In this document: positions 8,459-36,257 of the stretch, in pieces | Layout: every line of letters begins with the position of its first letter | Position numbering within the stretch: the first letter of the stretch is position 1 | NCBI GenBank assembly: GCA_007095785.1 | Contig: SFBL01000233.1 | Coordinates: forward strand, 1-59,783 | DNA length: 59,783 bases | Direction: 5' to 3' | From: Microcystis aeruginosa Ma_SC_T_19800800_S464 | Lineage (GTDB): Bacteria; Cyanobacteriota; Cyanobacteriia; Cyanobacteriales; Microcystaceae | The notes under the pieces: model-generated | What the model was told of the DNA's origin: nothing | What the model saw: the letters and a program-made list of their open reading frames with translations, nothing else | The model's database searches: none | Made by a program: the position numbers and the translations under genes

Positions 8459-9049
8459 TTAGTTCGGGTTCGGATTGGGGCGTTGTATCATTTCCACAAC
8501 ATTTTTGATACCTTGGATAAAAGTTTGAAAACTACGGGATTTATTTTCAGTTAGGGAAAGATGGGGGGCAATCTGTTTAGAGTGGGTTCCCGCATAATAC
8601 TCTTTCACTAGCTTTTGTAGTTCTTGTTTGGCCGAGTTAAGCAGGTCCGGTTCTCTGTATTTACTTTTATTTTGTTTTTGTCCGAGACTATTTAAATTAA
8701 ACGACTTGGCCACCGCTGCTAAATCTCCCAGAAACCAAGATTCTAATTCATGACAAATAATCCGAATTAATACTTGAGCATCACTGGCATTTTTACAAAT
8801 TTCTCCTAGTTCCTTTTTGAGTTTTTGACAATCGTGGGAATCCTGATCGTGAACAATAATAAATTTGGTCTTGGGACTAGATTTCTTGAAAGCTTTGAGT
8901 TTTATAGGAATAGATTTGGCTAGGTCTTGTTTACCTTGATGACTAATACATATATAGCTGATTTCTGGGTGAATAAGTTTAGGTAAAAGTTCGTTTAACA
9001 CATTTTCTATAGATGACTCTTCTAGCAAAAATACGATATCATAGTTCAT
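8459..9049 (-). CDS. DUF4276 family protein (TOPRIM-like partner of an AAA ATPase)
   Basis: A 196-residue protein. Motifs of the DUF4276 family are present: an early acidic site FLLEESSIENVL, the hydrophobic strand plus acidic turn IIVHDQDSHDC, and the hallmark CHELESWFLGD. These resemble the acidic centre of TOPRIM/OLD-type nucleases, so metal-dependent nuclease activity is plausible but unproven. The start ATG overlaps the stop of the ATPase gene by one base (TAATG), so the two are translationally coupled. AAA-plus-DUF4276 pairs recur in phage-defence (Abi/Rlo-like) loci. Confidence 0.82.
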   Translation of the reverse strand: MNYDIVFLLEESSIENVLNELLPKLIHPEISYICISHQGKQDLAKSIPIKLKAFKKSSPKTKFIIVHDQDSHDCQKLKKELGEICKNASDAQVLIRIICHELESWFLGDLAAVAKSFNLNSLGQKQNKSKYREPDLLNSAKQELQKLVKEYYAGTHSKQIAPHLSLTENKSRSFQTFIQGIKNVVEMIQRPNPNPN

Positions 9050-10233
9050 TATGGTGCTACTCCTTCAAACCAGCCTTGATTCCAAAGATAGCCGGGTAAA
9101 TCGCCTTCTGCTACTAAGTTTTTGAGGATTTCGCTATCGGTAGCCCTATGGATTTGGGTGATACCTTGGGATTTAATTAGCCAGAAAATACTAGCTAGTG
9201 GAACCGCATTGATAAAATCGGGAGAGTGGCTAGAAACAAATACCTGACCCCCCTGATCGCTATAGTGGGCGAATTCTTCGGCTAGTTCTTTTAATAAAGT
9301 AGGATAAAGTTGGTTTTCTGGTTCTTCGACACAGAGTAGGGGATGAGGATTGGGATCGAATAGTAATATTAAATAAGCGAACATTTTCATAGTCCCGTCA
9401 GAAACATAGCGATCAATAAAAGGGTCTTTAAATGCTTGATCTTGAAAACGTAAAATCAAGCGACCGTCTTCGGTTTCTTTGGCTTCCACAGAGGAAATAC
9501 CCGGAACTCGTTGTTTCATTCTTTCGAGAATTTGCTGAAAAATTTAGGGATATTGTTGATAAATATATTGGGCAACTGTTGCCATATTATCACCCGTGGG
9601 GGATAAGTGTTCAGCGTAAGATATTTCTTTACTTCCTCTAGCTTCGCTAATGTGAAAGTCGGAAATGTGCCAATTTTCAATCAGAGAACGAAAAGCAGTA
9701 GCGGCTTTAAAACGTTGAAATTGTCCTAATCCTTTGAGCGCTAGTATATCGTTAGATTCTAGCTGTTGTTCTTCTCGATCGAGTTCTTTATCCGGTTTAC
9801 TAAAATCTTCTTCGTTGGTGATAGCATATCCTTGACCGCGTTGAAAATCTAAAAAATGAAAAGGCGCACCGTGTTCACCCCGTTTATAGCGAAGTATTTC
9901 GCGTTTGATCATGGGGCGATTTTCCTCTTGTCCAATTCTGAGTATATAAGTAACCAGACGTTCTGTATCTGAGATTTTCATCCGAAATTGCAGCTCGATT
10001 TCAATATCTTCTTTTTCTTGACCTCTGGTAATAACTTCTTTATAACCGCCCAGAATTTGTAAGGCTTGGCGAATGTTATTTTTGAGAGCATCTCGCAGAA
10101 AACCAAAAATATCAAATAGGGTAGATTTTCCTGTACCATTAGCTCCAATAATCACGCAAAAAGGAGGAATATCTCTTATGTGTATATTTTTAAACATACG
10201 ATAGTTTTTTATTTTAATAGAAACAATTTTCAT
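9049..10233 (-). pseudogene. AAA (SMC/OLD-like) ATPase interrupted by one in-frame TAA
   Basis: The N-terminal half (10233-9544) holds Walker A IIGANGTGKSTL (residues about 29-39). The C-terminal half holds the signature-like SDGTMKMFAYLILL, Walker B LLCVEEPENQLYP and the switch HSPDF motif. The halves are in one frame, separated only by TAA at 9546-9544; the sequence reads QQYP-stop-IFQQILERMKQRVPG. A GAA to TAA change would explain it. The family is the ABC-like AAA_15/AAA_21 ATPases that partner DUF4276. Either a recent pseudogene, a split still working as two chains (ATG at 9519), or a sequencing error. Confidence 0.85.
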
Positions 10234-14407: not shown

Positions 14408-17400
14408 ATGTTTGAACGGTTCACAGACCAAGCGATTAAGGTAATTATGATAGCGCAGGAGGAAGCGTGTCGCTTGGGGCTTAATTTTGTAGGGGTGGAG
14501 TTTATATTTTTAGGGTTAATCGGTGAAGCAACAGGAATTGCATCACAAGTTTTAAGACAGCAGGGAATAACACTAAAAAATGCTCGGATTGAAGTTGAAA
14601 AAATTCTAGGAAGGGGTTCAGGAATTAGTCCAGAAATGAATCCTGTAGATATTCCTTTTACAGAGTCGGCAAAACTCGTTTTAAACAGTGCATTATCATT
14701 TGCTGATAAATTAGGGAGTGAATCTATTGATACAGAGCATTTACTGATTGGGATTTTTCAGCAAGGAGAAAGTACAGCGATAATTTTACAAAATTTACAG
14801 GTCAATCCGAAAGATTTAACTGTTTCTTTGAATCGGTATTTTCAGCATCAACCCTCTAATCAGTTACCTCAAACTGTTTATGTTCTGCTTTACAATGTGG
14901 GAACAGATGATGAGGGTATTCATACTATAAGTGTAGATGATAATCACAAAATATTACTGTTTGAGTCTCAAGAAGATGCGGCTACTTTCGCACGACAATT
15001 AGGGGAGCAGAATTTTCCTGTACCGAGTGTTGAAGCAATAGAAGCTGAGGATATTTTGGGATTTTGTCAGCAGCAGGGTGATGATTGGGAATTTGTAGCG
15101 CAAGGAACAAATAGAACTCCTCCTTCTCAAAATCAAACGATAAAACAGCAAGAACCTATAAAACAGCAAGAACCTATAAAACAACAAGAACCCATTAAAA
15201 AAAGGCGTAGTCAGTTAATTCCTATTATAGGAAAGCTAATATACAAGCTCGGCAGAAGTTTTATAATTCTCCTGTCTATTATCTTTATTGGTATTCCTTT
15301 GGGAATCTTAACGCTTATCTTTCCTTCATTTAGACGGAGAATAGAATCGTTTAACCGATCGTCTGCCTCTCGTTCCATATATCAACCTTCACAAGGAGTC
15401 ACTCTTGACATTGAAATACCCAACCAACAAGACTATCTCAATTTCTTAATGGATTCATTGCAAAGAATATCCGAAAATCCTAATCCTCAAGTAATTTATC
15501 CCTTCTGGGCGCAGAATCTTGATAAGTTAGATGATAATTTAGCACAAATCCTAGACAGTTGGGCAAGGAAGACATTAACGCAAGCCAATCCTAAGCAGGC
15601 ATATTTCGTCGCTGTTGATATTGTCACTTTCAGTAACTTTATTACACAATTTCCCCTCGGCGACATCGCTGTCAACCAAGAAATTGCGATTGATGGTTGT
15701 GAAATTGCCTTAACGATCGTAACTTTTGAGGCATTTCCCCAAAATTGGGCAGGGACGCAGAATAGTCTCGCTACCGCTTACATTTACCGAATCAGAGGGG
15801 AGAAAGCCGAAAATTTAGAAAGGGCGATCGCCGCTTGCCATGAAGCCTTGAAGGTGTTAACTTTTGAGGCATTTCCCCAAGAATGGGCATTGACACAGAA
15901 TAATCTCGCTGGTGCTTATACTGACAGAATCAGAGGAGAGAAAGCCGAAAATTTAGAAAGGGCTATCACCGGTTTCACGGAAGCCTTGAAAGTTTATAGT
16001 TTTGACGCATTTCCCCAAGAATGGGCAAGGACACAGAACAATCTCGCTGGTGCTTATCGTCGCAGAATCAGAGGAGAGAAAGCAGAGAATTTAGAAAGGG
16101 CTATCACCGGTTTCACGGAAGCCTTGAAAGTTTATAGTTTTGACGCATTTCCCCAAGAATGGGCAAGGACACAGAACAATCTCGCCACTGCTTACGGTGA
16201 CAGAATCAGAGGGGAAAAAGCAGAGAATTTAGAAAGGACGATCGCCGCTTGCCATGAAGCTTTGAAAGTATATACTTTTGAGGCATTTCCTCAAGATTGG
16301 GCAATGGCACAGCATAATCTTGCTACTGCTTACTGTTACAGAATCAGAGGGGAAAGAGCCGAGAGCTTAGAAAGGGCGATCGCCGCTTGCCATGAAGCCT
16401 TGAAAGTATATACTTTTGAGGCTTTTCCCCAAGAATGGGCATTGACACAAAATAATCTTGCTATCGCTTACATTTACCGAATCAGAGGGGAGAAAGCCGA
16501 GAGCCTAGAAAAGGCGATCGTCGCTTGCCATGAAGCCTTGAAAGTATATACTTTTGAGGCTTTTCCCCAAGAATGGGCATTGACACAGCATAATCTCGCT
16601 GCCGCTTACCTGTACAGAATCAGAGGGGAGAAAGCTGAGAATATAGAAAAGGGTATCACCAGGCTCTATAGAGCTTTGAAAGTGTATACATTTAACGCTT
16701 TTCCTCAGGAATGGGCAAGATCACAGAAATTTCTTGCTAATGCTTGTTGCGACAGAATCAAAGGTGATAGTGCTGAGAATTTAGAAATGGCGATCACCGC
16801 TTGCCAAGAAGCCTTAAAAGTTTATTCTTTTGACGCATTTCCCCAAGATTGGGCAGATACACAGAATGTTCTCGCTACCGCTTACAGTAACAGAATTAGA
16901 GGGGAGAAAGCTGAGAATTTAGAAAGAGCGATCGATGCTTACAAGGAAGCCTTGAAAGTTTATACTTTTGAGGCATTTCCTCAAGATTGGGCGATGACAC
17001 AGAATAATCTTGCTACTGCTTACAGTGACAGAATCAGAGGGGAGAAAGCCGAGAATTTAGAAAGAGCGATCGCCGCTTGCAATGAGGCCTTGAAAGTTTG
17101 TACTTTTGACGCATTTCCCCAAGAATGGGCAGGTACACAGAATAATCTCGCTACTGCTTACAGTGACAGAATCAGAGGGGAGAAAGCCGAGAATTTAGAA
17201 AGGGCTATCACCGCTTGCCATGAAGCCTTGAAAGTTTATACTTTTGACGCTTTCCCCCAAGAATGGGCATTGACACAGAATAATCTTGCTAGTGCTTACC
17301 TGTACAGAATCAGAGGGGAGAAAGCTGAAAATTTAGAAAGGACGATCGCCGGTTTAACGGAAGCCTTGAAAGTTTGTACTTTTGAGGCTTTTCCCCAGGA

Positions 17401-19273
17401 TTGGGCAAGAATACAAAATAATCTCGCTGTAGCTTACCGTAACAGAATCAGAGGGGAGAAAGCTGAGAATTTAGAAAGGGCGATCGCCTCATATCATAAT
17501 GCTTTAACAATCTACACAAAAGAATCTGCTCCTCTTGATTGTTTAGAATTTGCCAGTAATTTAGCGAATTTACATTATGTTGAAAATCAATGGCAACCTG
17601 CTGTAGAAGCCTATCATATCGCCATTGAAGCCGTTGAAAATGCTCGATTAGAAGCATTAAACCCCCAAAGTCGTCAAGAGGTTTTATCCAATGCCATTGG
17701 TGTTTTCCATCGCATCGTACGAGCTTATCTTAATCTCAATCAGCCTGAGAAAGCTTTAGAATATATTGAACGCAGTAAAGGGCGTAATCTGGTGGAATTA
17801 ATCACCCAGAAAAATCTACACCCCCAAGGCGTTAGTCAAGAAATTATCGCCCAATTAAATGAATTAAAACAACGAGTTGTTAACGAGCAAATCCGCTTAC
17901 AACATCAAAGCATTAACCAGAATTTAATGCGTAGTGATAACCTAACTCCCTACGTTCAAGATCACAGTTATCTGAAGGAATATCAACAAGATTTAGATAA
18001 TTTTATTGCAAGAGAAATTAAAGATCCTCTCTTTAGCCTCACTCAAAAAGTTGAACCGATCCCATTTGCAGAAATTCAATCATTAACTGATTCTGAAACC
18101 TTTTTGCTTCAATGGTATATTACAGGAGAAAAAATACTCGCTTTTGTCATATCTGCTGATAGAGAGGTTAAAGTTTGGCAATCTTCCGAAGAAGATAGAA
18201 ATCAATTATTTAATACAGTCCTCAATTACCTAAAGCTTTACAATAATTACAGACATAACATAAACGATCTGTGGAAACAACAACTTCCTAACTTACTGAA
18301 GAACTTTGCCGATATTCTACATATTAATGATATTCTTGCCCTCATTCCCGAAACTTGTCAACGCTTAATTATTATCCCGCATACGTATCTACATAACTTA
18401 CCCTTACACGCCTTACCTGTTGATCCCCCCCAACCCCCCTTAAAAAGGGGGGAGTCGGCAACGGGGGGATCAGAATTACAAGATTTATTTCCCAAGTGTG
18501 TACAATATGCCCCTAGTTGTCAAATCTTGCAAAAAATCTCCCAAACTTTTCACCATTCCGACTTTAATAAACTCTTCGCAATTCAAAACCCCACCAAAGA
18601 CTTATTTTACACCGACTTAGAAGTTAATATCCTCTCAACTTTCTTTACTGAACCTCAAGTTATCGCTAAAGATAACGCCACTAAAAACGCTGTTCTTCCC
18701 CATCTCAAATCCTCAGATAACCACTGTTATCACTTCTCCTGTCATGGAAGCTTTAACCCCGATAATCCCCTTGAATCCGCCTTATTCTTAGCCAATAAGG
18801 AACCCCTAACATTAGGCGAAATCTTTGAACTGCGCTTGAATAAATGCCGCCTTATCACCCTTTCCGCTTGCGAAACTGGCATGATTGATTTAAACTCTAT
18901 CAGCGATGAATATATCGGTTTACCCAGTGGTTTTCTATTTGCCGGAAGTCCCAGCGTTGTCAGTAGTTTATGGAAAGTTAGCGATTTATCTACCTCATTT
19001 TTGATGATGAAATTCTATGAAATTTTATTAGATAAAACTCAGCAAATTTCTGTCCCCGTTGCTTTGAAAATGGCACAAAATTGGTTGAAGAATTTGACAA
19101 GTCAACAATTTATTTTAGAAACAGATTCAATAATAGATAAACTCTATTCTAATAAGCCAAGACAAGCTAAATCCTATAAAGAATCAGCCCGTCAATTCTT
19201 AGTACAAAATCCTGAAGAATATCCCTTTAAAAATCCCTCCTATTGGGCTGCATTCATAGCATCTGGACAATAG
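14408..19273 (+). CDS. Clp N-domain / DUF3110 / TM / TPR / CHAT protease fusion protein
   Basis: A 1621-residue multidomain protein. Residues 1-145 form a double Clp N repeat (MFERFTDQAIKVIMIAQEEA, then GRGSGISPEM) like the substrate-receiving domain of ClpC. Residues about 158-232 match DUF3110 (YVLLYNVGTDDEGIHT, then GFCQQQGDDWEFV). A triple KQQEPI repeat leads to a membrane segment at about 283-306. Residues 441-1038 are thirteen 46-residue TPR-like units. The C-terminus is a caspase-like CHAT domain with catalytic His 1446 (HFSCHG) and Cys 1488 (SACETG). CHAT proteases in defence and stress systems cleave partner proteins after TPR sensing. I infer a membrane-anchored sensor-protease; the substrate is unknown. 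Confidence 0.93.
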   Translation: MFERFTDQAIKVIMIAQEEACRLGLNFVGVEFIFLGLIGEATGIASQVLRQQGITLKNARIEVEKILGRGSGISPEMNPVDIPFTESAKLVLNSALSFADKLGSESIDTEHLLIGIFQQGESTAIILQNLQVNPKDLTVSLNRYFQHQPSNQLPQTVYVLLYNVGTDDEGIHTISVDDNHKILLFESQEDAATFARQLGEQNFPVPSVEAIEAEDILGFCQQQGDDWEFVAQGTNRTPPSQNQTIKQQEPIKQQEPIKQQEPIKKRRSQLIPIIGKLIYKLGRSFIILLSIIFIGIPLGILTLIFPSFRRRIESFNRSSASRSIYQPSQGVTLDIEIPNQQDYLNFLMDSLQRISENPNPQVIYPFWAQNLDKLDDNLAQILDSWARKTLTQANPKQAYFVAVDIVTFSNFITQFPLGDIAVNQEIAIDGCEIALTIVTFEAFPQNWAGTQNSLATAYIYRIRGEKAENLERAIAACHEALKVLTFEAFPQEWALTQNNLAGAYTDRIRGEKAENLERAITGFTEALKVYSFDAFPQEWARTQNNLAGAYRRRIRGEKAENLERAITGFTEALKVYSFDAFPQEWARTQNNLATAYGDRIRGEKAENLERTIAACHEALKVYTFEAFPQDWAMAQHNLATAYCYRIRGERAESLERAIAACHEALKVYTFEAFPQEWALTQNNLAIAYIYRIRGEKAESLEKAIVACHEALKVYTFEAFPQEWALTQHNLAAAYLYRIRGEKAENIEKGITRLYRALKVYTFNAFPQEWARSQKFLANACCDRIKGDSAENLEMAITACQEALKVYSFDAFPQDWADTQNVLATAYSNRIRGEKAENLERAIDAYKEALKVYTFEAFPQDWAMTQNNLATAYSDRIRGEKAENLERAIAACNEALKVCTFDAFPQEWAGTQNNLATAYSDRIRGEKAENLERAITACHEALKVYTFDAFPQEWALTQNNLASAYLYRIRGEKAENLERTIAGLTEALKVCTFEAFPQDWARIQNNLAVAYRNRIRGEKAENLERAIASYHNALTIYTKESAPLDCLEFASNLANLHYVENQWQPAVEAYHIAIEAVENARLEALNPQSRQEVLSNAIGVFHRIVRAYLNLNQPEKALEYIERSKGRNLVELITQKNLHPQGVSQEIIAQLNELKQRVVNEQIRLQHQSINQNLMRSDNLTPYVQDHSYLKEYQQDLDNFIAREIKDPLFSLTQKVEPIPFAEIQSLTDSETFLLQWYITGEKILAFVISADREVKVWQSSEEDRNQLFNTVLNYLKLYNNYRHNINDLWKQQLPNLLKNFADILHINDILALIPETCQRLIIIPHTYLHNLPLHALPVDPPQPPLKRGESATGGSELQDLFPKCVQYAPSCQILQKISQTFHHSDFNKLFAIQNPTKDLFYTDLEVNILSTFFTEPQVIAKDNATKNAVLPHLKSSDNHCYHFSCHGSFNPDNPLESALFLANKEPLTLGEIFELRLNKCRLITLSACETGMIDLNSISDEYIGLPSGFLFAGSPSVVSSLWKVSDLSTSFLMMKFYEILLDKTQQISVPVALKMAQNWLKNLTSQQFILETDSIIDKLYSNKPRQAKSYKESARQFLVQNPEEYPFKNPSYWAAFIASGQ
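15728..17521 (+). repeat. Thirteen tandem 138-bp units (46-residue TPR-like repeats)
   Basis: Each unit encodes about EAFPQEWALTQNNLA, then a Y/R-rich turn RIRGEKAENLERAI, then an A-C-H-E-A-L-K-V-Y-T-F helix. Units 2 and 3 are almost identical in DNA. Only unit 8 is strongly diverged (RIKGDSAENLEMAI). The low divergence implies recent expansion or gene conversion, and copy number may vary between strains. Confidence 0.92.
18422..18471. repeat. REP-like palindromic element inserted in frame in the CHAT gene
   Basis: Outer arms GATCCCCCC/GGGGGGATC and inner arms CCCCCCTTAAAA/AGGGGGG form a small nested palindrome. It is translated as VDPPQPPLKRGESATGG, which breaks the usual CHAT sequence just after LPLHALP. 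The PPLKRGES peptide is the usual signature of this cyanobacterial dispersed element when it lies in coding DNA. Confidence 0.8.
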
Positions 19274-19275
19274 AA

Positions 19276-19662
19276 TTAAGCATTAGATTGACACCATTGT
19301 TTGATCCCCTTTTTCGCCAAATAAATAACAACAGAAGTTGCTACTGATACTGGGATTTGTCCCCCCGCCGCTAACGTTGCTACTGCTACAGTTAGTAAAT
19401 CTTTCATGAGATCATTTATAAAATCATCATCACACACAACAGAACGGCATTTTTTAGCTAATTTATCTAGAATATTATCCTCTTCCCCTGCTCTAGTAGG
19501 AATCTCTACACCTGTTTCCGTTGCCAATAAACCAGCAGATTTAATTAAATCGCCGTCTGTTTCTGCAATTAAGTCTAAAGCATCCAAAGCTTCAGAATAA
19601 TCCTTAAATTGCTGCCGATAGTGTTGAATTTCTTCTGGTGTTAACTGAGTTGTATTGTCCAT
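19276..19662 (-). CDS. Small protein with hydrophobic C-terminus beside the CHAT protease
   Basis: A 128-residue protein from ATG 19662 (MDNTTQLTPEEIQHYRQQF); the longer frame to 19794 is likely not used. A helical N-terminal half (YSEALDALDLIAETDGDL) is followed by a Cys-containing middle (KKCRSVVCDDDF) and a hydrophobic segment (LLTVAVATLAAGGQIPVSVA). I think a cyanobacterial family of this shape exists, but I cannot name it. It is convergent with the CHAT gene, with 2 bp between the stops. It is a candidate partner or substrate of the protease, by position only. Confidence 0.75.
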   Translation of the reverse strand: MDNTTQLTPEEIQHYRQQFKDYSEALDALDLIAETDGDLIKSAGLLATETGVEIPTRAGEEDNILDKLAKKCRSVVCDDDFINDLMKDLLTVAVATLAAGGQIPVSVATSVVIYLAKKGIKQWCQSNA

Positions 19663-23754: not shown

Positions 23755-23980
23755 TATCAGTTATCAGTTATCAGTTATCAGTTATCAGTTAAGTGAGTGG
23801 GTGGAATTAAATATAAGATGAACGTAGGTTGGGTTGAAGCATGAAACCCAACACCCGCTCAGGTTACGAAGTGCGATAACCCATCCTACAAATAATTGTG
23901 CCTCCCTACTTATCAGTTATCAGTTCACTGTTTACTGATCACTGTTTACTGATTACTGTTCACTGTTTACTGCTCACTGA
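23755..23980. repeat. Heptamer arrays and a GTAGGTTGGGTT palindromic element
   Basis: TATCAGT heptamers at about 23755-23790; a 66-bp element at 23824-23889 with inverted ends GTAGGTTGGGTT and AACCCATCCTAC; then ACTGTTTACTGATC-type units at about 23911-23980. The last array abuts the kinase-GUN4 gene. A GTG-started extension of that gene would translate the array, so the ATG at 24012 is preferred. Confidence 0.8.
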
Positions 23981-24011
23981 AACATCTTCCCTATCCCTCT
24001 TTAAACTAGCC

Positions 24012-25457
24012 ATGAGTTTATGTCTTAATCCCGATTGTCTATATAACAATGATACTACGGATAAATTTTGTCAAAAATGTCGCTTCCAATTATTACTCAA
24101 AGATCGTTATCGTGCCATAAAATTAATTGGTCAAGGAGGTTTTGGTAAAACTTTTCAAGCAATTGATGAGGATAAACCTTCTCAACCCTATTGTGTGATT
24201 AAACAATTTTTTCCTAGCGCTCAAGGTAGTAATGCTCTCAAGAAAGCTGCGGAATTATTTAAAGAAGAAGCGATTAGTTTAGATAATCTCGGTCAACACC
24301 CACAAATTCCCTCCCTCTATGCCTATTTTACCAGCAATGATGGGCGACAATATCTTGTTCAAGAATATATTGAGGGAGAAAATCTAGAACAAGAATTACA
24401 AAGCGAGGGAGTTTTCAATGAAGAAAAGATCAAACATCTTTTATTAGAAATTTTGCCAATTCTTGATTTTATCCATGCTAAAAGAGTCATTCATCGAGAT
24501 ATTAAACCTGCTAATATAATTAGGAGACGCAGCGATAATAAACTAATTTTAGTGGATTTTGGTGCCTCTAAATTTATGACTATTGCTAATCTTTCCCTGA
24601 CAGGAACAGTGATCGGTTCGGCGGGATATATCGCCCCAGAACAAAGTAATGGCAAAGCAATTAATAGCAGTGATTTATATAGTTTGGGAGTCACTTGTAT
24701 CTATTTATTAACGGGAATATCTCCCTTTGAATTATTCGATGTGAGAGAACATGAATGGGTATGGAGACAGCACCTGATTAATAATCCTGTTAGTGTTGAA
24801 TTAGGTGAAATTTTAGATAAATTAATTGAATTTGGCACCAAAAAACGTTATCAATCAGCCGGGGAAATCCTGCAAGAGTTAGCGGTAAAATTAGCCGTCG
24901 TGATTCCGCCAAAACCCCGATCACAGGCCACAATTCAAGAAACGGTTTTGCCAGTTTTTCCAGTTGCCACCAGGGAGGAAATTAACCTCAAAAGTGCCAA
25001 GGCAATTGATTACACCAATCTGCGGGGTTTATTAGCGCAAGAAAAATGGCAAGAAGCAGATCAAGAAACGGCTAATCTATTCTTAAAAGTTGCCGATCGA
25101 ACTAAAGAAAAATATCTTAAGATAGAAGATATAGATAACTTTCCCTGTGAAGATTTAGCCACTATCAATCAACTCTGGTTACAATATAGTCAGGGAAAAT
25201 TTGGTATATCTGTTCAGAAAAAAATCTATGAAAGTTTGGGAGGAAGCGGCAATTATGATCAACAAAAATGGAACGCTTTCGGGTCAAAAGTCGGTTGGCG
25301 AGTTAATAACAAGTGGTTGTACTACGATCAAATTACTTTCTCTCTCAAAGCACCCTCCGGACATCTTCCCACCCTTGTGTGGGGTGTGGGTGGTGGCATA
25401 ATTCTTTTTTCTCGTCTGGAAAACTGTACCATTGACGTAGTTTCTAGCAGGGGATAA
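24012..25457 (+). CDS. Ser/Thr protein kinase with C-terminal GUN4 domain
   Basis: A protein of 481 residues from ATG 24012; the longer frame would translate heptamer repeats. The N-terminus has a zinc-ribbon-like Cys set (C4, C9, C20, C23). The Hanks-type kinase domain has the glycine loop GQGGFGKTF, Lys 64 (VIKQFF), HRDIKPAN at 161-168 and DFG at 182-184, so it should be active. Residues about 330-470 form a GUN4 domain (YTNLRGLLAQEKWQEAD, then WNAFGSKVGW), which binds porphyrins and activates Mg-chelatase in true Gun4. The fusion suggests a tetrapyrrole-sensing kinase (inference). It is convergent with the anti-sigma gene. Confidence 0.92.
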   Translation: MSLCLNPDCLYNNDTTDKFCQKCRFQLLLKDRYRAIKLIGQGGFGKTFQAIDEDKPSQPYCVIKQFFPSAQGSNALKKAAELFKEEAISLDNLGQHPQIPSLYAYFTSNDGRQYLVQEYIEGENLEQELQSEGVFNEEKIKHLLLEILPILDFIHAKRVIHRDIKPANIIRRRSDNKLILVDFGASKFMTIANLSLTGTVIGSAGYIAPEQSNGKAINSSDLYSLGVTCIYLLTGISPFELFDVREHEWVWRQHLINNPVSVELGEILDKLIEFGTKKRYQSAGEILQELAVKLAVVIPPKPRSQATIQETVLPVFPVATREEINLKSAKAIDYTNLRGLLAQEKWQEADQETANLFLKVADRTKEKYLKIEDIDNFPCEDLATINQLWLQYSQGKFGISVQKKIYESLGGSGNYDQQKWNAFGSKVGWRVNNKWLYYDQITFSLKAPSGHLPTLVWGVGGGIILFSRLENCTIDVVSSRG

Positions 25458-33869: not shown

Positions 33870-36257
33870 TTAACCCACCGGTTGTAACTGTAATTGGGAG
33901 AGAATATCGTTCTGCTCGGAGCGCCGATGACTAGAGACTGTCACCACAGCTTCAGCAGTTACATCTAATAGCGCATGGTCTCCAGAATTGACTTTTCCCG
34001 ATAACATCGCCTCGGCTAAACTATCCTCTAAGCGTCGAGTTAAAGCACGACGTAAAGGCCGCGCACCGTAGCTAGGATCATAACCCTCATTGATGACCAA
34101 ATCCTTAAAAGCGGCGGTAACTTCCACAGAAATACCTTTTTCTGTCAATTGTTTGGCTAGATCTGCGATAAGAATATCAGCAATCTGGGTAACTTCTTCG
34201 CGAGTTAACTGTCGGAAAACAATGATTTCATCGAGACGGTTGAGAAATTCGGGACGGAAATATTGTTTTAACTCGTCTGTCACCCGATTAGAAATCTGTT
34301 GGTAACGCGATTGAGCAAAATCGTCAGCAATCTCGAATCCTAAGCTATTACCGCCTTTTTCGATGACTTTTGAGCCAATATTCGAGGTCATAATAATTAG
34401 GGTATTCTTAAAGTCCACCCGACGACCTTGGGAATCGGTTAAATGACCATCTTCTAACAGTTGCAGGAGAAGATTAAAAACATCGGGATGTGCTTTCTCG
34501 ATTTCGTCAAACAAAACTACTTTATAGGGTTGACGACGCACTGCTTCCGTTAACTGACCGCCTTCATTGTAACCGATGTATCCGGGAGGCGCACCAATTA
34601 ACTTAGAAACCGTGTGGGATTCCATAAATTCCGACATATCTAGGCGAATCATACTGGATTCCGAGCCAAAGAGCAACTTAGCTAAGGCTTTCGTTAATTC
34701 AGTTTTACCCACTCCCGTGGGACCGGCAAAAATAAACGAGGCAATCGGACGGTTAGGATTCTTTAAATTTACTCGCGCTCGACGAATAGCACGAGAAACG
34801 GCATTCACTGCCTCCTGTTGACCAATAATCCGCTCATGCAGTTGATATTCCAGATTTAAGAGCGATTCCGACTCAGTTTCAGTTAATTGGGTAACGGGAA
34901 TACCTGTCCAAGCGGCGACAATTTGGGCGATTTCCTCCGCATCCACCACCGGAATTAAAGATTCGGGGTTAATTAGGGGTGATTCTTCGTTAACCTCTGC
35001 GGGACTTTTACTTTGTAGGGAATAGCGCAGATGGGTGCGGGATCCTGCTTCATCGAGAAGATCGATCGCTTTGTCCGGTAAAAAGCGATCATTGATATAG
35101 CGCGAGGATAGATTAACGGCAGCTTCGATCGCTTTTTGATCGTATTTTACCTGATGGAAATCCTCGTAGGTGGCTTTTAAACCGCGTAAAATCTCGATCG
35201 CTTGCTCTTTAGTCGGTTCTCCCACCATAACTGGCTGAAAACGTCTTTCTAGAGCCGCATCTCGCTCAATATGCTGTTTATACTCATCGAGAGTGGTTGC
35301 CCCTAAACACTGTAACTCGCCGCGAGCTAAAGCAGGTTTAAGCAAGTTAGAAGCATCCATGGCTCCTCCCATGCTACCAGCACCCACAAGAGTGTGAATT
35401 TCATCGATAAACAGGATAATACTGCCCGATTTGCGAACTTCCTCCACAACACCCTTTAAACGTTCTTCAAAATCGCCGCGAAAACGGGTTCCCGCCAGTA
35501 AAGACCCCATATCGAGGGCAATTACCTCTTTATCCCGCAAAATTTCGGGAATATCGCCATTATGGATGAGTTGTGCTAACCCTTCAGCGATCGCTGTTTT
35601 CCCCACCCCCGGCGCACCGAGTAAAATCGGATTATTCTTGCCGCGACGGCCCAAAATTTGGATAACTCGCTGGATTTCTGGCTCTCTACCGATTACAGGG
35701 TCAATTTTGCCATTTTTGACCTCTTGGCTTAAATTGCGACTATATTGGGCTAAAATCCCGCCTTGGGGAGCATTTTTCTGGTCTTCATAGTCACTCTTTG
35801 CCGTGAAGCGACCACTAGCGACTTTTTCCCCAGCATTTTTCAGTAAAAGGCCGCGAAGTTTGATCAAATCAACACCCTGCATAATTAAAATTTTAGCGGC
35901 TAGGGATTCGGGATCGGCGGTGATAGCAAGTAATAGATGTTCAGGTGCGATCGCCTGTTCCCCTAATTGTCGAGCTTCCTGAAATGCTTGCTCGAACATC
36001 TTTTTCGCTTTCGGGGTAAAAGGGATATTAACGGGACTGTAACCGCTGCCGCGGCCGGTCATTCCTTCAATCACCCGGCGACTCTCGTGCAGGGTGACTT
36101 TTAAATCCTTGAGAATTAAGGCTGCGGTGGCGGTGGCTTCTCCTATCAATCCTAACAGTAAATGCTCCGTCCCCACGACACTGTGACCGGTACGACGGGC
36201 TTCTTCTTGAGCGAACATCACCGCTTTGATAGCTTTCTGGTTAAAGTATTCAAACAT
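33870..36257 (-). CDS. clpC: ClpC-type AAA+ chaperone/unfoldase, middle domain reduced
   Basis: A 795-residue Hsp100 protein that unfolds substrates for ClpP. The double Clp N domain (residues 1-145) begins [21 protein letters not shown]1 has Walker [11 protein letters not shown] and Walker [11 protein letters not shown]2 has [10 protein letters not shown], and a ClpP-docking LGF loop in NSLGFEI. Between D1 and D2 only about 27 residues ([20 protein letters not shown]) separate GSRTHLRYS from [14 protein letters not shown], where typical ClpC has a longer coiled-coil UVR-containing middle domain. This is therefore probably a divergent paralogue, not the main ClpC, and may not answer to MecA-type adaptors. 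It is followed by a strong terminator. Confidence 0.92.

What the first reader, a model, noticed from the sequence alone, without database searches (positions are those of the whole stretch)
14408..19273. Membrane-anchored CHAT protease with a ClpC-type N-domain and DUF3110
One gene joins a double Clp N domain (normally the substrate/adaptor dock of ClpC), DUF3110, a membrane segment, thirteen TPR-like units and a CHAT caspase-like protease with intact His 1446 and Cys 1488. Seen: the motifs and their order. Known: CHAT proteases are TPR-gated and act in programmed responses. Inference: the Clp N domain may recruit proteins marked for degradation, or regulate Clp adaptors, and activate or feed the protease. 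I do not recall this exact architecture being described.
Basis: partly seen in the sequence, partly recalled or inferred. Interest (0 to 1): 0.85.

Follow-up and report, generated by a model that had tools for sequence, protein, structure and literature searches.

The report
ClpC-fronted TPR-CHAT protease in Microcystis
A bloom-forming cyanobacterium carries a large caspase-like protease whose front end resembles the docking part of the cell's own protein-recycling machine and whose repeat region varies like a sensor, which suggests an infection- or stress-triggered protease rather than a housekeeping one.

Summary
In detail: one 1,621-aa ORF reads double Clp_N, DUF3110, one membrane segment, thirteen 46-aa TPR units and a CHAT protease with His1446/Cys1488. 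It recurs: 6 of 388 genomes of the order carry the Clp_N-DUF3110 module (five Microcystis, one other genus): four complete to CHAT, one cut by a contig end, one broken. The membrane segment is not shared by the other fusions. At one shared locus the TPR-CHAT body was exchanged behind an almost unchanged module. Between genera the fused Clp_N has pS 0.21, host ClpC 0.80, so the gene moves horizontally. Eight TPR positions carry excess amino-acid change in six of six arrays. I read this as a modular, sensor-type CHAT conflict protease with a constant ClpC-derived dock or bait. The boldest reading, a decoy for phage proteins such as NblA that exploit ClpC, is plausible but unproven. 'Feeding' of degradation substrates has no direct support.

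The parts
14408..19273 (+). Clp_N-Clp_N-DUF3110-TM-TPR(13)-CHAT protein, 1,621 aa
14453..14611 (+). first Clp_N repeat
   Evidence: E 6.5e-12; ClpC N-domain fold
14690..14833 (+). second Clp_N repeat
   Evidence: E 7.7e-7
14876..15124 (+). DUF3110 domain
   Evidence: E 4.0e-30
15140..15192 (+). linker of three 18-bp repeats (QEPIKQ-type)
15263..15319 (+). hydrophobic, probably membrane-spanning segment (best 19-mer, residues 286-304); allele-specific
15734..17527 (+). thirteen 46-aa TPR units, residues 443-1040; positions 7, 14, 17, 18, 33-36 of the unit vary most
18347..19270 (+). CHAT protease domain, residues 1314-1621
18743..18745 (+). catalytic His1446 codon (by motif)
18869..18871 (+). 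catalytic Cys1488 codon (by motif)
19276..19662 (-). 128-aa helical protein encoded tail-to-tail with the CHAT gene; candidate substrate or regulator

Best explanation
The gene encodes a modular conflict-type (probably immune or cell-death) CHAT protease. Shown: an N-terminal module of a ClpC-type N-domain plus DUF3110 stands before a TPR array of variable sequence and unit number and a CHAT protease with an intact dyad; at one locus the module stays while the TPR-CHAT body differs; the gene has crossed genera; a small helical protein is encoded tail-to-tail with CHAT genes of this type. Inferred: the TPR array is the variable sensor that keeps CHAT inactive until a ligand binds, as TPR gating is said to work in Csx29 (recalled); the Clp_N-DUF3110 module is a constant dock or bait for proteins that normally bind ClpC or DUF3110 proteins (ClpS, NblA or phage versions); on activation CHAT cleaves one or more proteins, the convergent 128-aa protein being the first candidate as substrate or regulator, and the cell stops growing or dies. 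My odds for the steps: sensor-type conflict protease 0.65; module binds Clp adaptors or mimics of them 0.5; small protein is substrate or regulator 0.5.
For: Domains and dyad; ClpC N-domain fold; recurrence in 6 of 388 genomes and two genera with CHAT confirmed in L021, L022 and G600; body exchange behind the module between the window and L021 (97.7% over 6.36 kb, then loss of similarity; Clp_N no synonymous difference, CHAT dS 0.55); horizontal movement (pS to G600 0.21 in Clp_N and 0.51 in CHAT against 0.80 in host ClpC N-domain); excess amino-acid change at eight TPR positions in six of six arrays, five of them not used to pick the positions; tail-to-tail partner in 18 of 30 loci plus a second copy in this genome; distant sequence match to Csx29 and other TPR-CHAT structures.
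Against: No activity, trigger or binding partner is shown. pN/pS at the TPR positions exceeds 1 in three of six arrays only (window 1.31, which is circular; G097 1.54; L023 1.24) and is 0.77-0.86 in L022, L021 and G600; the arrays share ancestry. No PADLOC model matched the protein at E<=0.1, and of the nearby genes scanned the only ones suggestive of defence are the split AAA gene and DUF4276 at 8459-10233. L021 lacks the small gene, so the partner is not obligatory. The CHAT domain is under ordinary purifying selection (dN/dS 0.20-0.38), which an intracellular signalling protease would show too.
Confidence: 0.55

Rival explanations
1. Integrated decoy: Clp_N-DUF3110 copies host proteins that phages exploit. 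Phage NblA (which brings phycobilisomes to ClpC) or a phage DUF3110 protein binds the decoy and switches on CHAT.
For: ClpC-type N-domain present. NblA is a ClpC adaptor (PMC7966870, passages). NblA matches 18 phage records, nine of them Microcystis-infecting (eight named Microcystis phage plus MaMV-DH01, some being duplicate accessions); Ma-LMM01 nblA is expressed in infection and phycobilisomes are degraded (PMC5780444, passages). The host DUF3110 protein matches 250 of 50,697 phage records, and PMC3597751 remarks on DUF3110 in marine cyanophages (passages).
Against: In the passages read, NblA binds ClpC but the site on ClpC is not given. None of the 250 DUF3110 phage records falls under the name Microcystis phage (188 Synechococcus, 40 'Cyanophage', 16 Prochlorococcus, 6 Marine; only 40 rows seen). 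With the fused DUF3110 as query only 6 phage records match. The fused Clp_N has drifted from ClpC (about 60% identity).
Confidence: 0.2
2. Adaptor-fed protease: ClpS, NblA or other adaptors dock on Clp_N and deliver marked proteins to CHAT for cleavage.
For: True ClpC-type N-domain with both conserved Glu (residues 31 and 110; that these are the phospho-arginine-pocket positions of ClpC is recalled) aligned to ClpC; ClpS twice and NblA once in the genome.
Against: CHAT proteases are not known to me as processive degraders; weak constraint on the fused Clp_N (dN/dS 0.27-0.48 in eight of ten pairs) compared with ClpC (two distinct proteins in 12 genomes); patchy distribution.
Confidence: 0.12
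3. Homotypic adaptor module: Clp_N-DUF3110 works like an effector-associated domain that couples the protease to other proteins bearing DUF3110 or Clp_N, such as a STAND-linked DUF3110 protein.
For: Genome G235 carries both the fusion (L022) and a second DUF3110-bearing 1,131-aa protein (L087) next to frames with STAND-type lid similarity.
Against: In this genome the only other DUF3110 is the stand-alone 136-aa frame; the pairing was seen in one genome.
Confidence: 0.08
4. Domain-shuffling product without function in the N-terminal part: a TPR-CHAT gene that picked up a neutral extension.
For: Weak constraint on the fused domains; one broken copy, in G388, with stop codons and a transposase-like gene behind the fragment.
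Against: dN/dS below 1 in 17 of the 19 pairs that give a value, five open copies in two genera, module kept while the body differs.
Confidence: 0.05

Closest known systems
Csx29 (TPR-CHAT protease of type III-E CRISPR, Craspase)
   Same: TPR part followed by CHAT with His-Cys dyad; sequence match to Csx29 and related CHAT chains
   Different: Score 78.7 against a family cut-off of 300; extra Clp_N-DUF3110 front; thirteen homogeneous units; no CRISPR link sought here
ClpC (Hsp100 unfoldase)
   Same: Double Clp_N, about 60% identical to the host ClpC N-domain, same fold
   Different: No AAA+ modules in the protein; fused to TPR-CHAT
Stand-alone cyanobacterial and cyanophage DUF3110 proteins
   Same: Same Pfam domain; 43% identity to the host copy, 47-57% to other cyanobacterial copies aligned
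   Different: Those are short stand-alone proteins of unknown function; here it is a domain of a protease
FtsH ternary conflict systems with ClpN repeats (Kaur et al. 2020, PMC7159879)
   Same: ClpN as an accessory domain in a conflict protein, with caspase-like effectors in the same class of system (passage)
   Different: There ClpN is fused to vWA; no CHAT fusion is mentioned in the passage; the partner genes described there were not seen among the neighbours scanned here
HetF (cyanobacterial CHAT protein, divisome and heterocyst role)
   Same: Cyanobacterial CHAT protein (PMC8406250, search listing only)
   Different: Not compared by sequence here

Membership tests
CHAT protease (PF12770) | CHAT profile above the curated cut-off | tested here: met
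   150.5 bits against 24
CHAT protease (PF12770) | His-Cys dyad | tested here: met
   His1446, Cys1488; dyad motifs also in L021, L022, G600 and G097; L023 ends before CHAT
CHAT protease (PF12770) | proteolytic activity | not testable with these tools
   needs an assay
Csx29 | NCBIfam Csx29 model above cut-off | tested here: not met
   78.7 bits against 300
Csx29 | linked type III-E effector gene and Csx30 | not tested
   no search made
ClpC | double Clp_N domain of ClpC type | tested here: met
ClpC | two AAA+ modules | tested here: not met
   no AAA match in the protein at E<=1
Metacaspase/orthocaspase (Peptidase_C14) | Peptidase_C14 p20 match | tested here: not met
   not among 19 families at E<=1
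Conflict systems in the sense of Kaur et al. | architectural variability between close relatives with a retained core | tested here: met
   module retained, TPR-CHAT body exchanged
Conflict systems in the sense of Kaur et al. | linked regulatory NTPase (STAND, MoxR, GTPase) | tested here: inconclusive
   not among the neighbours scanned; not every gene of the window was scanned
Integrated-decoy receptor | domain copied from a host protein that a parasite targets | tested here: inconclusive
   ClpC-type N-domain; Microcystis phages carry NblA; targeting of that domain not shown
Integrated-decoy receptor | parasite protein binds the decoy and activates the effector | not testable with these tools
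   needs binding and activity assays

The most novel reading that the evidence does not exclude
A bacterial integrated-decoy receptor: a copy of the ClpC docking domain and of a host protein that cyanophages also carry (DUF3110) baits phage proteins that take over Clp proteolysis, such as NblA of Microcystis phages, and releases a CHAT protease that acts through a tail-to-tail encoded partner.
Probability: 0.2. Interest if true: 0.88.

Novelty: new variant of a known kind. Interest (0 to 1): 0.62.

Why it matters
A bacterial receptor built on a copied host docking domain would parallel integrated-decoy receptors of plants (recalled) and would tie phage take-over of the Clp system to cell death in bloom-forming cyanobacteria. 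Separately, the unnamed tail-to-tail partner gives a concrete first substrate candidate for cyanobacterial TPR-CHAT proteases.

Tried and rejected
Arginine-phosphate reading (Clp_N as a phospho-arginine reader): the arginine-kinase family gave no match in this genome, but none of the control genomes rang either, so the search says nothing. Mobility on plasmids: 45 of 72,556 plasmid records match the module, none over 80% of it; 15 rows were seen and those with annotation under the match are Clp ATPases. Phage-borne Clp_N: 23 of 50,697 records, none with a cyanophage name in the tally. A named fold for the small protein: no PDB or BFVD match at E<=0.001; in Pfam, scattered weak matches, mostly in one member of 29, the best 5.6e-5 in one member and none shared by more than two. 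A profile match to a designed repeat protein (7rdr, E 5.7e-12, but with no stretch passing on its own) was taken as composition noise. Actinobacterial Clp_N hits: 13 loci (L024-L026, L034-L043) were looked at as open frames; the frames that begin with Clp_N are about 170-530 aa and show no CHAT by length or eye, but they were not scanned by profile, and L044 was not looked at. One ungapped comparison of the two small genes of this genome was invalid (indel) and is not used; the first run for G600 was a codon out of register and was redone (pN 0.087, pS 0.333). Extra DUF3110 copies in G103, G131, G155 and G157 were not followed; G131's two lie in one 315-aa frame. PHROG matches in the TPR part were taken as repeat noise. 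A search for HetF with PatU3 found no held paper; a search for integrated decoys with anti-phage found two, seen as listings only.

Full report
What is there. Pfam finds two Clp_N repeats, DUF3110, TPR_10 with ten stretches, and CHAT, each above its curated cut-off. The dyad is His1446 and Cys1488 by motif. The repeat is thirteen contiguous 46-aa units (138 bp, 12.8 copies). The first 247 residues were modelled with a 31-row alignment (mean pLDDT 82.5, pTM 0.60), and the Clp part matches ClpC N-domains among solved structures (5gui E 8e-15). The 50 rows shown there are mostly ClpC, with ClpD and ClpT, and told me nothing about DUF3110. The CHAT half matches Csx29 and other CHAT chains but stays below the Csx29 family cut-off. 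The genome holds 11 CHAT matches.

Where it occurs. In the genus, 5 of 12 genomes have the module; one (L023) ends at its contig edge inside the TPR part, and one (G388) has stop codons in the matched stretch and a transposase-like gene behind the fragment. In the order, 6 of 388 genomes have it at E<=1e-45, the sixth being G600 of another genus in the same family, with a 1,493-aa Clp_N-DUF3110-TPR-CHAT protein. That cut-off would miss more diverged fusions. In a phylum sample DUF3110 was found in 185 of 386 genomes; among the rows listed, nearly all lie in frames of 98-211 aa.

Modular exchange. The window and L021 share one locus. They align at 97.7% over 6.36 kb that ends at the DUF3110 boundary; then mismatches per 60 bases go from 0-3 to 15 and then 39-48, the CHAT part aligns at 85%, and the aroB side returns to 95%. 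The Clp_N parts differ by no synonymous change, while the CHAT parts have dS 0.55. G388 shares the window's left flank; L022 and L023 have the module in other surroundings, as far as the fetched flanks go. In G097 a similar TM-TPR-CHAT body stands without the module; a stop lies upstream of that frame, so I cannot exclude that its front was lost. The membrane segment is present in the window and G097 but not in L021, L022, L023 or G600. Between the window and G600 pS is 0.21 for Clp_N, 0.36 for DUF3110, 0.51 for CHAT and 0.33 for the small gene, against 0.80 for the host ClpC N-domain, whose protein is 99% identical. So the gene seems to have crossed genera more recently than the genomes parted; ClpC N-domain is the only core gene that I compared. 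In a 12-sequence tree the five fused Clp_N separate from ClpC and the rest with support 0.998.

Selection. Of ten pairs, fused Clp_N has dN/dS 0.27-0.48 in eight; one pair has dS 0 and one gives 1.45 on very few changes. Fused DUF3110 gives 0.41-0.93 in nine of ten and 1.26 in one. CHAT gives 0.20-0.38 in ten of ten. Host ClpC N-domain has two distinct proteins in 12 Microcystis genomes. In the TPR units, positions 7, 14, 17, 18 and 33-36 were picked on the window array (pN/pS 1.31 against 0.23 elsewhere, circular). The same positions give 1.54 against 0.31 in G097, 1.24 against 0.57 in L023, 0.86 against 0.36 in L022, 0.83 against 0.51 in G600 and 0.77 against 0.55 in L021; random sets of eight positions reach the observed pN in 0, 0, 0, 67 and 6 of 5,000 draws in that order. 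The spacing 7-14-17-18 would put them on one side of the first helix of each unit (inference; no structure of the array was predicted). This fits a repeat sensor whose ligand-facing residues diversify; with shared ancestry and high pS in the older arrays it is suggestive, not proof.

The partner gene. A 128-aa protein is encoded at 19276-19662 (-), its stop codon two bases from the CHAT stop. A search with it matched 285 of 388 genomes of the order. Of the 30 loci fetched (best matches first, one per genome), 18 have a CHAT frame beside it within 1.5 kb, one of these only a 73-aa piece; the second copy in this genome also lies tail-to-tail with a TPR-CHAT gene. In 15 of these 19 pairs the two stop codons overlap or lie within 14 nt; in the other four they are 81, 261, 319 and 433 nt apart by the frames I used. 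In the other 12 loci, from the lower-scoring part of the list (L113 on), no CHAT frame was found within the flank. The model is confident (pLDDT 92.2), matches no solved or viral fold at E<=0.001, and no Pfam family covers the group. The L021 locus, whose body differs, lacks it, so it seems to go with the body, not with the module. I take it as first candidate for substrate or regulator; that is inference from linkage.

What it does. Best explanation: a TPR-sensing CHAT conflict protease with a constant ClpC-derived dock or bait. For the bait: this genome has NblA once and ClpS twice; NblA and ClpS are ClpC adaptors (PMC7966870, passages); nine Microcystis-infecting phage records encode an NblA, and in Ma-LMM01 it is expressed during infection (PMC5780444, passages); DUF3110 matches 250 of 50,697 phage records, in line with a remark in PMC3597751 (passages). 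Against: the passages that I saw do not say where on ClpC NblA binds, no DUF3110 phage record is tallied under Microcystis, and the fused Clp_N drifts. So the decoy is one rival, not the conclusion.

Novelty. Searches of the held papers listed no paper that joins 'CHAT domain' with ClpN or DUF3110: the 12 papers hold ClpN terms without CHAT. DUF3110 is named in one held paper. ClpN repeats in conflict systems are known, fused to vWA (PMC7159879, passages); passages of PMC8195603 were also seen. PMC8406250 and PMC10907252 were seen as search listings only. The library lacks most subscription papers, so this is not proof of absence. I class it as a new variant of a known kind: TPR-CHAT proteases are known; the module, its exchange and the linked partner are the new parts.

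Noticed in passing
L113, L115, L116, L118-L120, L122, L123, L125, L126, L128, L130: Members of the small-protein family without a CHAT frame in the 1.5-kb flank; the family as a whole matched 285 of 388 genomes of the order and has no Pfam name.
   Followed up: partly
L087:2693-6085 (+), genome G235: DUF3110 (E 4.1e-15) inside a 1,131-aa frame with hydrophobic stretches, next to frames with a STAND-type lid match (AAA_lid_TANC1) and propeller-like sequence by eye: a second large-protein context for DUF3110.
   Followed up: partly
window 8459-10233 (-): AAA_15/AAA_21 ATPase spread over two open frames beside a DUF4276 gene; looks like a split defence-type ATPase pair.
   Followed up: no
window 33870-36257 (-); G600:C1:1046364-1046753: A 795-aa Clp ATPase with Clp_N lies about 15-20 kb from the fusion in the window, and a like gene about 20 kb from it in G600; in G388 it is far away, so it may be coincidence.
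   Followed up: no
L090 (G600:C1:1015000-1034000): Near the G600 fusion are frames that look by eye like a relaxase and a plasmid-type actin, suggesting an integrated mobile element; not profile-checked.
   Followed up: no
L022:10001-14740: The M. viridis fusion carries inside its TPR part a helical segment that resembles, by eye, the N-terminal region of two other TPR-CHAT genes (L092, L094), a further sign of mosaic exchange.
   Followed up: no
window 23898-25457 (+): Ser/Thr protein kinase frame with a weak, sub-threshold 4-Cys prefix match, about 4.6 kb downstream.
   Followed up: no
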